From positions 1 through 52,428 of the forward strand of contig JAAYTX010000205.1 of assembly GCA_012523635.1 (NCBI GenBank): 52,428 bases of DNA, given 5' to 3'. The stretch comes from Elusimicrobiota bacterium (lineage in GTDB: Bacteria; Elusimicrobiota; Elusimicrobia; Elusimicrobiales; Elusimicrobiaceae). A program made the translations under genes and the position numbers. The notes below the pieces were generated by a model. The model searched no databases. It was not told where the DNA came from and worked only from the letters and a program-made list of their open reading frames with translations. Shown one piece after another: positions 1 to 2,692 of the stretch (positions within the stretch are counted from its first letter, which is position 1; each line of letters opens with the position of its first letter).

Positions 1-3
1 CTA

Positions 4-74
4 CTCCGGGACTAGGATTCGAACCTAGACAAAGCGGTTCAGAGCCGCTTGTGCTACCGTTACACCATCCCGGA
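4..74 (-). tRNA. tRNA-Gln (anticodon CTG)
   Basis: Read on the minus strand the sequence folds into a full cloverleaf. The acceptor stem is TCCGGGA/TCCCGGA, the anticodon stem AGCGG/CCGCT encloses the loop CTCTGAA, and the T arm carries GGTTCGAATCC. The anticodon CTG (positions 42-40) reads CAG, so this is a glutamine tRNA. A U1-A72 first pair and G73 discriminator are usual for bacterial tRNA-Gln. The 3' CCA is not encoded (TAG follows), so it must be added by tRNA nucleotidyltransferase. The downstream end of the transcript lies at the window edge. Confidence 0.95.
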
Positions 75-95
75 ATCTGTACTGCGTGTAAGATG

Positions 96-180: not shown

Positions 181-600
181 ATGACCGACAGCCGCCAACC
201 AAGCGCCCCAAGCCTGCCTCCCGGCTCGTTCGAGGAGAAATTCACCCGCAGCGGCGGGCATGGCGGGCAGAACGTGAACAAGGTGTCCACCACCGTGCAG
301 TTGCGGTTTTTCCCCCGCCTTGCCGGGCTGGAGCCTGAAACCATAGCCCGCCTTGAGCGCCTTGCCGGAAGCAAACTTACCGAAGGCGGCGACATACTGA
401 TTACCGCCAGCGAATACCGCACCCAGGAGCAGAACCGCCAGGCCGCGCGCCAGCGCCTGCTTGAACTGCTTGCCGCCGCGCACCGCCGCGAAAAAAAGCG
501 CAGGCCCACGCGGCCGTCCTTCGGCGCTAAAAAGCGCCGCCTTGAAGGCAAAAAGCGCCGCTCCGAAATAAAGCGCGGGCGCGGTGCGGATTATTTCTAG
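181..600 (+). CDS. arfB: Peptidyl-tRNA hydrolase ArfB (YaeJ-type ribosome rescue factor)
   Basis: A 139-residue protein, almost the same length as E. coli ArfB. It carries the release-factor catalytic motif GGQ at residues 28-30, in the context GGHGGQNVNKVST that is characteristic of the ArfB/ICT1 family. It is followed by a mixed alpha/beta core and a long, strongly basic C-terminal tail (about residues 100-135, rich in K and R). In the family that tail enters the empty mRNA channel of stalled ribosomes, and GGQ hydrolyses the peptidyl-tRNA. The ATG follows closely on a possible -10 (TACAAT, 165-170), so the leader would be very short and no Shine-Dalgarno is visible. The gene ends in TAG just before a strong stem-loop. 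Assignment is confident. Confidence 0.93.
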   Translation: MTDSRQPSAPSLPPGSFEEKFTRSGGHGGQNVNKVSTTVQLRFFPRLAGLEPETIARLERLAGSKLTEGGDILITASEYRTQEQNRQAARQRLLELLAAAHRREKKRRPTRPSFGAKKRRLEGKKRRSEIKRGRGADYF

Positions 601-620: not shown

Positions 621-653
621 AAAAAAAGGCCCTTCTCTCGAAGGGCCTTTTTT
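621..653. terminator. Bidirectional intrinsic terminator between arfB and the small Lys-rich gene
   Basis: The hairpin AAGGCCCTTC-TCTC-GAAGGGCCTT is flanked by A-runs on the left and T-runs on the right. It can therefore terminate arfB on the plus strand and the convergent 39-residue gene on the minus strand. Confidence 0.85.
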
Positions 654-667
654 GTGAAGCGAATAAA

Positions 668-787
668 CTACTTTCTCTTCTTGGAAGTCTTGCAGCCACA
701 GCCGCAGTGACATTTCGCTGTTTTCTTCTTTGCCACTTTCTTCGCGGCCTTCTTCACCGACTTCTTCGCAACCTTTTTCTTAGCCAT
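668..787 (-). CDS. Very small Lys/Ala-rich protein with CxCxCxC motif
   Basis: An open frame of 39 codons from ATG (787-785) to TAG (670-668). Reasons to think it is real: a strong Shine-Dalgarno (GGAGG, about 8 bases before the ATG), a promoter with both -35 and extended -10 boxes upstream, and a stem-loop terminator just downstream. Residues 1-25 are repeats of Lys, Ala and Val resembling a histone H1 or HU-tail sequence. Residues 26-32 read CHCGCGC, four cysteines spaced by single residues, which suggests a metal site. Residues 33-39 are again basic. The composition suggests a nucleic-acid-associated protein that binds or senses a metal. I do not recognise the family, and the function is inference. 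Confidence 0.7.
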   Translation of the reverse strand: MAKKKVAKKSVKKAAKKVAKKKTAKCHCGCGCKTSKKRK

Positions 788-819
788 CCCTAACCTCCGT
801 GTTGTAATAACCTGCTACT

Positions 820-847
820 AGCATAACAGAAATTTGGGATTTGTCGA
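820..847 (-). promoter_or_regulatory. Promoter of the small Lys-rich gene
   Basis: On the minus strand TCGACA (847-842) is followed after 16 bases by TATGCT (825-820). TGT sits directly before the -10, making it an extended -10 (TGTTATGCT). Predicted transcription would begin near 813 and give a leader of about 25 bases containing GGAGG. This is the most consensus-like promoter seen in the window. Confidence 0.6.
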
Positions 848-910: not shown

Positions 911-2692
911 ATGAACGCACTGCACCTGCTTCTGGTTTCACTTCTTGTTTTTGCGCTGGCTTACCGCTACTACGCCGCCTTCCTGGCGGCAAAAGTCCTG
1001 GCTTTCGACCCGGAGAAAACAACCCCCGCCCACTCGCTCAACGACGGGCACGACTACAAGCCCACAAACCGCTGGGTGCTGTTCGGCCACCACTTCGCCG
1101 CCATTGCGGGCGCCGGCCCTCTGGTGGGGCCGGTGCTTGCCGCGCAGTTCGGCTACCTGCCCGGCTTTGTGTGGATACTGGTGGGAAGCGTGCTTGCCGG
1201 AGCGGTGCACGACATGGTGATACTTTTCGCCTCGGTGCGGCACAACGGCCTTTCGCTTAACGAAATAGCCCGCATAGAAATAGGAAAACTGGGCGGCGGG
1301 GCAACCACCGTGGCGGTGCTGTTCATCCTCATCACTGCGCTGGCGGGGCTGGCGCTGGTGGTGGTGGGCGCGCTGGCGCAAAGCGCATGGGCCACCTTCA
1401 CCATAGCGGCCACCATACCCATTGCAATCCTCGTCGGGCTTTATATGGAAAAGTTCCGCCCGGGAAAAGTTTTCGAGGCTTCCTTCATAGGCTTCGTGCT
1501 TATCCTTATGGCCGTGACGCTTGGGGAACCCCTTGCCAAAAGCTCCTACGCCGGCTGGTTTCTGTTCGACAAAAACCGCATCACCATACTGCTGGCGGCA
1601 TACGGCGCGCTGGCCTCCATACTGCCGGTGTGGCTGCTGCTTGCGCAGCGCGACTATCTCAGCTCCTACCTTAAAATAGGCACCATCGGCGCGCTTGCGC
1701 TGGGCATACTGTGGGTGCGGCCCGAAATAAACGCCCCGGCGTTCTCGGCTTTCGTTGGCGGCGGCGGGCCGATAATCCCGGGCAAGGTATGGCCCTATGT
1801 GTGCATCACCATAGCCTGCGGCGCAATATCGGGTTTCCACAGCCTGATCAGCTCCGGCACCACGCCTAAAATGCTGGGTAGCGAACGAGACATCCGCTTC
1901 ATAGGCTACGGCGCTATGCTTACCGAAGCCTTCGTTTCGCTTATGGCGCTTATCGCCGCCTGCGCCCTCGCCCCCGGCGACTATTTCGCCATAAACGTGC
2001 CGGTGGAAACTTTCCAGAAGCTGGGCCTGTCCACGGTAAACCTGCAAAACATGAGCGCCGCTGTGGGCGAACAGCTTCAGGGCCGCGCTGGCGGCGCGGT
2101 CTCGCTTGCAGTGGGCATGGCGCAGATTTTCTCGTCCATACCCGGCATGAGGCATCTGCTGGCCTACTGGTACCATTTCGCCATAATGTTCGAGGCGCTG
2201 TTCATCCTCACCACCGTAGACGCCGGGACCCGCGTGGCCCGCTACATATTGCAGGAGGCGGGCGGACGCGTGTACAAGCCCATGGGCGACATACACTGGT
2301 GGCCCGGAGTGGTGATATGCAGCGTCGCCGTAAGCGCGGCGTGGGCCGCCATGGTGATGGGCGGCAACATCTCCACAATCTGGCCCATGTTCGGGGTTTC
2401 CAACCAGTTGCTGGCCACTATAGCGCTGGCGATAGGCACCACGTTCATCCTCAGGCGCACGTCAAAACCCGTCTACGCGCTGACAACCTTCCTGCCGTTC
2501 GTGTTCATGTTCGCCACCACGGTTTACGCAGGGGTGCTGAACATAGTCCACAACTACCTGCCCAAGGGCGGCACCACCGGTTATATAAATACTGCGCTGA
2601 CGCTGATCATGCTTGCGCTGTCCGCGCTGATAGCGGCGGTGTGTGCGCGGTCGTGGCTGTCCCTGCTTAACAAAGACAAAAACGCGGCCTGA
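911..2692 (+). CDS. cstA: CstA-type peptide/pyruvate transporter (carbon starvation protein A family)
   Basis: A 593-residue polytopic membrane protein. The N-terminal portion, with the sequence around NDGHDYKPTNRWVLFGHHF and the following AGAGPLVGPVLAAQFGYLPG stretch, is a hallmark of the CstA family. The segment HSLISSGTTPKMLGSERDIRFIGYGAML is another. The length is that of the shorter CstA/BtsT-like members. Members import peptides or pyruvate during carbon limitation. That fits a window rich in peptidases and with a pyruvate:ferredoxin oxidoreductase. The gene stands alone between two terminators. The Shine-Dalgarno is weak (an AAGG about 18 bases upstream). Confidence 0.9.
   Translation: MNALHLLLVSLLVFALAYRYYAAFLAAKVLAFDPEKTTPAHSLNDGHDYKPTNRWVLFGHHFAAIAGAGPLVGPVLAAQFGYLPGFVWILVGSVLAGAVHDMVILFASVRHNGLSLNEIARIEIGKLGGGATTVAVLFILITALAGLALVVVGALAQSAWATFTIAATIPIAILVGLYMEKFRPGKVFEASFIGFVLILMAVTLGEPLAKSSYAGWFLFDKNRITILLAAYGALASILPVWLLLAQRDYLSSYLKIGTIGALALGILWVRPEINAPAFSAFVGGGGPIIPGKVWPYVCITIACGAISGFHSLISSGTTPKMLGSERDIRFIGYGAMLTEAFVSLMALIAACALAPGDYFAINVPVETFQKLGLSTVNLQNMSAAVGEQLQGRAGGAVSLAVGMAQIFSSIPGMRHLLAYWYHFAIMFEALFILTTVDAGTRVARYILQEAGGRVYKPMGDIHWWPGVVICSVAVSAAWAAMVMGGNISTIWPMFGVSNQLLATIALAIGTTFILRRTSKPVYALTTFLPFVFMFATTVYAGVLNIVHNYLPKGGTTGYINTALTLIMLALSALIAAVCARSWLSLLNKDKNAA

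What the first reader, a model, noticed from the sequence alone, without database searches (positions are those of the whole stretch)
668..787. Histone-like Lys/Ala peptide with CxCxCxC metal motif
A 39-residue gene has its own strong promoter, GGAGG and terminator. It joins an H1-like repeat of Lys and Ala to CHCGCGC. Small basic proteins with clustered cysteines between basic arms are unusual. It could be a DNA- or RNA-binding peptide controlled by a metal, or a metal-storage peptide. It is too short for most gene callers, so it may be missed in relatives.
Basis: partly seen in the sequence, partly recalled or inferred. Interest (0 to 1): 0.6.

Follow-up and report, generated by a model that had tools for sequence, protein, structure and literature searches.

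The report
Tiny histone-like protein with cysteine cluster
The 39-residue gene is very probably real: it looks like one member of a set of tiny lysine/alanine-rich, histone-H1-like proteins found across the bacterial phylum Elusimicrobiota, many of which carry a small cysteine cluster whose position and spelling differ between lineages, hinting at metal- or thiol-controlled DNA packing that nobody has tested.

Summary
The minus-strand ORF at 668-787 encodes MAKKKVAKKSVKKAAKKVAKKKTAKCHCGCGCKTSKKRK. It has GGAGG six bases before ATG, a plausible sigma-70 promoter, and a strong terminator shared with the convergent neighbour. The window is from an Elusimicrobia MAG; no other genome of its genus was available. 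Across the phylum I found about 45 similar free-standing genes (20-130 codons) with the same layout: promoter, AGGAG, Lys/Ala/Val repeat, terminator. Cysteine clusters recur in different forms: KACAKKACAKKAC, KKCCAKKCCKK, KKGCGCKK, RCGCRCK, MPCCCK, and CHCGCGCK here. They are absent from most of the sister family f2. Lys/Ala tails fused to other proteins in the same genomes almost never contain Cys (2 in 1269 residues, against 118 in 4245 in free-standing regions), so the Cys are probably selected rather than a by-product of the repeat. Best reading: a miniature H1-like nucleoid protein whose basic arm coats DNA or RNA, and whose thiol cluster joins peptides through a metal ion or disulfide, as in protamines. 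Nucleic-acid binding is inferred from composition and known H1-like proteins; metal binding is untested. Pure metal storage is less likely because apparent counterparts lack Cys. It is a new variant of a known kind.

The parts
668..787 (-). 39-codon gene, MAKKKVAKKSVKKAAKKVAKKKTAKCHCGCGCKTSKKRK plus stop
   Evidence: only copy in the genome; about 45 free-standing analogues in the phylum
713..784 (-). N-terminal Lys/Ala/Val arm, residues 2-25 (H1 C-terminal-domain-like; single-sequence AlphaFold helix 4-25, mean pLDDT about 70)
692..712 (-). CHCGCGC cluster (residues 26-32)
671..691 (-). C-terminal basic tail KTSKKRK (residues 33-39)
794..798 (-). Shine-Dalgarno GGAGG, six bases before ATG
   Evidence: relatives mostly have AGGAG in the same place
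820..847 (-). sigma-70-like promoter TCGACA-16-TATGCT with TG before the -10
   Evidence: relatives have TTGCAT...TATTAT-like elements about 45-60 bases before ATG
622..653 (.). intrinsic terminator, 14-bp stem, shared with the convergent arfB-like gene
181..600 (+). convergent neighbour: RF-1-domain (ArfB/YaeJ-like) peptide release protein
   Evidence: PF00472, E 2e-19
911..2692 (+). divergent neighbour: carbon starvation protein CstA
   Evidence: PF02554, E 1.3e-206

Best explanation
The gene encodes a miniature H1-like nucleoid-associated protein. The Lys/Ala/Val arm (residues 2-25, helix-prone) and the KTSKKRK tail bind DNA (or RNA) without sequence preference through their charge. The CHCGCGC cluster between them is an add-on that links peptides through bound Zn(II), Cu(I) or Fe(II), or under oxidation through disulfides, so compaction of nucleic acid would depend on metal or redox state, as for Cys-containing protamines. 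Shown: the gene structure, a phylum-wide set of similarly built genes, and recurrent Cys clusters in them that are almost absent from comparable Lys/Ala tails. Inferred: nucleic-acid binding, from composition and known H1-like proteins. Not shown: expression, metal binding or cross-linking.
For: About 45 free-standing Lys/Ala/Val genes of 20-130 codons, typically with a promoter, SD and terminator of their own, occur in families f1, f2, f13, f20 and f21 of the phylum. The closest short match, in another family of the class, is MAKKKVAKKVAKKKVAKKKSMGKRCGCRCK (L084/L146). In genus g6 the proteins use only K, A, V, T, P and C (63 Cys and 1 Gly besides the five repeat letters, in 1709 residues); Cys is 3.7% against 1.56% in neighbouring proteins of g6 and g3 loci. 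Lys/Ala tails fused to longer proteins in these loci carry 2 Cys in 1269 residues, free-standing regions 118 in 4245. Local gene order suggests orthology across Cys spellings: g2 (GCGC) and g6 (CAKKAC) appear to share an upstream CYTH-like gene judged by eye, and g3 (CCAKKCC) and g5 (no Cys) share two nearby genes that look like rnc and fabG. Longer members score weakly to chlamydial HC2 (E 6.7e-5) and Burkholderia H1-like models (E 2.5e-4), below curated cut-offs. H1-like Lys repeats bind DNA in AlgP (PMC9239181) and Hc2 (PMC2848022); protamine 2 Cys bind zinc and protamine 1 Cys form disulfides (PMC5175393).
Against: Homology between repeats made of so few residue types cannot be proven by sequence; the window gene (between arfB and cstA) shares no neighbour with relatives, and no same-genus genome was held. 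The Cys cluster is absent from most of family f2 and from some f1 species, so it is not essential to the basic function. No expression, DNA-binding or metal data exist. The genome also encodes an HU-type protein, so this would be an extra nucleoid protein.
Confidence: 0.5

Rival explanations
1. H1-like nucleoid (or RNA-coating) peptide in which the Cys cluster has no metal or redox role and is tolerated drift within a repeat.
For: Cys clusters vary in number, spelling and position, and are missing in many counterparts; tandem paralogues in L212 include one with and one without Cys.
Against: In g6 the only residues beyond K, A, V, T and P are 63 Cys and 1 Gly; Lys/Ala tails on other proteins in the same loci have almost no Cys.
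Confidence: 0.2
2. Metal-binding or metal-storage peptide (metallothionein-like) in which the basic residues only balance the metal-thiolate cluster.
For: CHCGCGCK has the CxC spacing typical of thiolate metal clusters (general knowledge); four Cys and one His in seven residues.
Against: Cys-less counterparts with the same gene layout (L142, most of f2, L119, L132); no Pfam, NCBIfam or PDB match; adjacent genes are arfB and cstA.
Confidence: 0.1
3. Ribosome- or RNA-associated tiny basic protein, comparable in size to bTHX or other very small basic ribosomal proteins.
For: Size of 22-39 residues and extreme charge; monocistronic with good SD; family f2 genes have a hairpin right before the SD with two-sided changes, as could serve autoregulation.
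Against: H1-type KKVAKK repeats expand to 130 residues and vary in repeat number, unlike small ribosomal proteins; weak profile matches are to H1-like proteins.
Confidence: 0.12
4. Polyphosphate or granule partner, working like AlgP/PhaF tails.
For: AlgP's Lys-rich H1-like tail is needed for polyP granule spacing (PMC9239181).
Against: No granule-binding N-terminal domain in a 39-residue protein; no granule gene adjacent.
Confidence: 0.05

Closest known systems
Chlamydial histone H1-like Hc2 (PF07382; hctB)
   Same: Lys/Ala/Val/Thr/Pro repeats, length variation by repeat number, simple composition; a longer relative (g6) scores E 6.7e-5
   Different: 165-237 aa, repeats with Arg, conserved flanks; the paper text searched does not mention cysteine. 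The window protein has no match, and relatives stay below the gathering cut-off.
AlgP / PhaF C-terminal KPAA tails
   Same: Lys/Ala-rich H1-like repeat that binds DNA (PMC9239181)
   Different: A tail of a larger two-domain protein; KPAA rather than KKVA repeats; no Cys cluster described in the passages read
Bordetella BpH1 / Burkholderia H1-like protein (NF038053)
   Same: Free-standing bacterial H1-like protein; weak profile match of a g6 relative (E 2.5e-4)
   Different: Much longer; model cut-off (80 bits) not reached (21.4 bits)
Mammalian protamines 1 and 2
   Same: Very small basic chromatin proteins with clustered Cys; zinc or disulfide links (PMC5175393)
   Different: Arg- rather than Lys-based, eukaryotic, no homology; works-like comparison only
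Metallothioneins
   Same: CxC spacing next to Lys
   Different: Cys cluster is short and optional among counterparts; no profile match

Membership tests
Histone H1-like HC2 (PF07382) | Profile match above gathering score | tested here: not met
   Window protein: no hit. g6 relative 23.5 bits against a cut-off of 40.
Histone H1-like HC2 (PF07382) | Lys/Ala-rich short-unit repeats of variable number | tested here: met
H1-like nucleoid proteins (functional class) | Binds and condenses DNA | not testable with these tools
   Inferred from composition and precedent (PMC9239181, PMC2848022)
Protamine-like (works like) | Small, very basic protein with Cys clusters | tested here: met
   (sequence anatomy only; residence in chromatin not tested)
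Protamine-like (works like) | Zinc binding or disulfide cross-linking by the Cys | not testable with these tools
   Needs peptide chemistry
Metallothionein | Profile match to a metallothionein family | tested here: not met
   No Pfam hit at E up to 1; NCBIfam only an irrelevant hit at E 1.5
Metallothionein | Cys retained in orthologues | tested here: inconclusive
   Cys-less counterparts L142, L119, L132 and most of f2, but their orthology to the window gene itself is not proven
Small basic ribosomal proteins | Present in ribosomes | not testable with these tools
   No sequence match in PDB, which is only weak evidence for so short a query

The most novel reading that the evidence does not exclude
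Elusimicrobiota use a phylum-wide, tiny protamine-like chromatin protein in which metal- or redox-responsive cysteine clusters arose several times independently, at the N-terminus (MPCCCK), in the middle (KACAKKAC, KKCCAKKCC, KKGCGC) and near the C-terminus (CHCGCGCK, RCGCRCK), making DNA compaction respond to metal or thiol state.
Probability: 0.3. Interest if true: 0.75.

Novelty: new variant of a known kind. Interest (0 to 1): 0.55.

Why it matters
Bacterial H1-like proteins are known, but I found no report of free-standing ones of 22-40 residues or of ones with recurrent cysteine clusters. If the clusters bind metal or cross-link, this would be a bacterial counterpart of the Cys/zinc logic of protamines, arrived at repeatedly in one phylum. 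It is directly testable: peptides of 30-75 residues can be synthesised, and one carrier (G001, a single 1,643,562-base contig, which from memory is the Elusimicrobium minutum Pei191 chromosome) appears to be a cultured species.

Tried and rejected
No match for the window peptide in Pfam, NCBIfam, PDB, plasmids or 31 genomes of other phyla (an empty answer without a positive control, and tblastn's low-complexity filter may hide such queries). A CHCGCGCK codon-pattern scan of viral contigs found nothing. The arfB-based search of genome contigs gave Elusimicrobia loci that lack the gene next to arfB, so that gene order is not conserved. Apparent synteny through CstA in L148 was a distant paralogue about 3.7 kb away and was rejected. 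The hit in L002 (G037) lies in a 265-aa open frame and was not taken as a free-standing gene. RNA families at the locus: only tRNA.

Full report
What is there. The minus-strand ORF 668-787 encodes MAKKKVAKKSVKKAAKKVAKKKTAKCHCGCGCKTSKKRK. GGAGG (794-798) precedes the ATG by six bases. A sigma-70-like promoter with TG before the -10 lies at 847-820. A 14-bp terminator hairpin (622-653; -22.7 kcal/mol, z -4.4) follows, shared with the convergent arfB-like gene (181-600). On the other side cstA (911-2692) is divergent. In simulations of the intergenic stretch, an ORF of this length is common (29%), but none of 20,000 had 40% Lys or more. The CxCxCxC codon pattern alone is not rare in the genome: 25 DNA-level matches, 16 in the reversed control.

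Source. The window is contig C107 of a 2.35-Mb, 209-contig genome (94% complete) with no other genome of its genus in the held set. The nearest named arfB relatives are Elusimicrobia MAGs. The genome carries one copy of the peptide and one HU-type gene.

Relatives. A search of 341 genomes of the phylum gave, in another family of the class, the 30-codon MAKKKVAKKVAKKKVAKKKSMGKRCGCRCK (L084/L146), and in the sister family MPKAKKKVAKKAVKKIAKKTSKRK (L106/L147). A codon pattern for the Lys/Ala repeat hit 134 of 341 genomes, though many hits are tails of other proteins. Reading the loci out gave about 45 free-standing genes with a common layout: a TTGCAT...TATTAT-like promoter about 45-60 bases before ATG, AGGAG, the repeat, a terminator. 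The layout was read by eye from the printed flanks; it was not scored statistically.

Cysteines. Family f1: g6 usually 2-3 Cys as KACAKKACAKKAC (21 of 23 proteins have at least two), g3 KKCCAKKCCKK or TCTKKACAKKACAKKAC, g2 KKGCGCKK, g4 KKCATKKCAK, g1 (window) CHCGCGCK, g5 none. Family f2: none in the 15 proteins counted, one Cys in g14. Family f13: RCGCRCK. Family f21 (Endomicrobia-like): MPCGCK, MACCTK, MPCCCK; L212 has a neighbouring pair, one with three Cys and one with none. In g6, residues other than K, A, V, T and P are 63 Cys and one Gly in 1709 residues, and Cys is 3.7% against 1.56% in neighbouring proteins. As an internal control, Lys/Ala tails fused to longer proteins in the same loci have 2 Cys in 1269 residues, against 118 in 4245 in free-standing regions. 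The sequences are related by descent and the free set may include some out-of-frame ORFs, so I give no P value, but the contrast argues against Cys being a by-product of the repeat.

Homology. Proteins with so few residue types cannot be proven homologous by sequence. Local gene order supports orthology within parts of the set: five g3 loci share an upstream gene, g6 loci share flanking genes, g2 and g6 appear to share an upstream CYTH-like gene (by eye; not detected by the BLAST), and g3 and g5 share two nearby genes that look like rnc and fabG. The window locus shares none of these, so its membership rests on similarity of sequence and layout.

Function. Longer members match HC2 and Burkholderia H1-like profiles weakly, below cut-offs. 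Lys-rich H1-like repeats bind DNA in AlgP (PMC9239181) and Hc2 (PMC2848022). AlphaFold on the single sequence gives a helix 4-25 and an unstructured Cys tail at modest confidence (mean pLDDT 70), which says little. The protamine comparison (PMC5175393: zinc on protamine 2 Cys, disulfides in protamine 1) is a works-like argument. If the hosts are anaerobes, as gut members of the family are from general knowledge, metal coordination is more likely than stable disulfides; this is inference.

Novelty. Full-text searches for Elusimicrobiota with histone and for small H1-like Cys-bearing bacterial proteins found no description of this set in the titles and abstracts returned, within an open-access library only. 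Other phyla were hardly sampled, so restriction to Elusimicrobiota is not established. I rate it a new variant of the known kind 'bacterial H1-like protein'.

Noticed in passing
L147, L156-L161, L163-L168 (family f2), upstream of the start codon: A 4-5 bp inverted repeat sits directly before the Shine-Dalgarno in 13 of 15 f2 genes, with two-sided changes by eye (GCGC/GCGC, GCAC/GTGC, GCCC/GGGC, GCGT/ACGC). It could be an autoregulatory or mRNA-stabilising hairpin; the MAFFT alignment misplaces some arms, so it was not scored formally.
   Followed up: partly
L228 1501-1722 (own genome); L188, L189, L196; L199-L216; L154, L155: A small two-repeat protein (KVGVKREDGYLYFIDKDGDVSRA...) stands alone before a folD-like gene in the window's genome, lies about 3 kb from the tiny H1-like gene in f2 genus g10, and is fused to an H1-like tail (some with KACAKKACKK) in f21 and g11. 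This hints at a functional link; no significant Pfam or PDB match.
   Followed up: partly
L143 (G001:C1:1433300-1443300): The KKGCGCKK version lies in a genome of one 1,643,562-base contig, which from memory is the size of the cultured Elusimicrobium minutum Pei191 chromosome.
   Followed up: no
L111, L117, L118, L131 (AAA+/Lon-like proteins); L128, L129, L133, L138 (sigma-factor-like proteins); L162, L169: Several ordinary proteins in Elusimicrobiales have Lys/Ala H1-like C-terminal tails, almost without Cys. The protein names are by eye.
   Followed up: partly
window 3-75 (-): tRNA-Gln (CTG anticodon) at the contig end.
   Followed up: no
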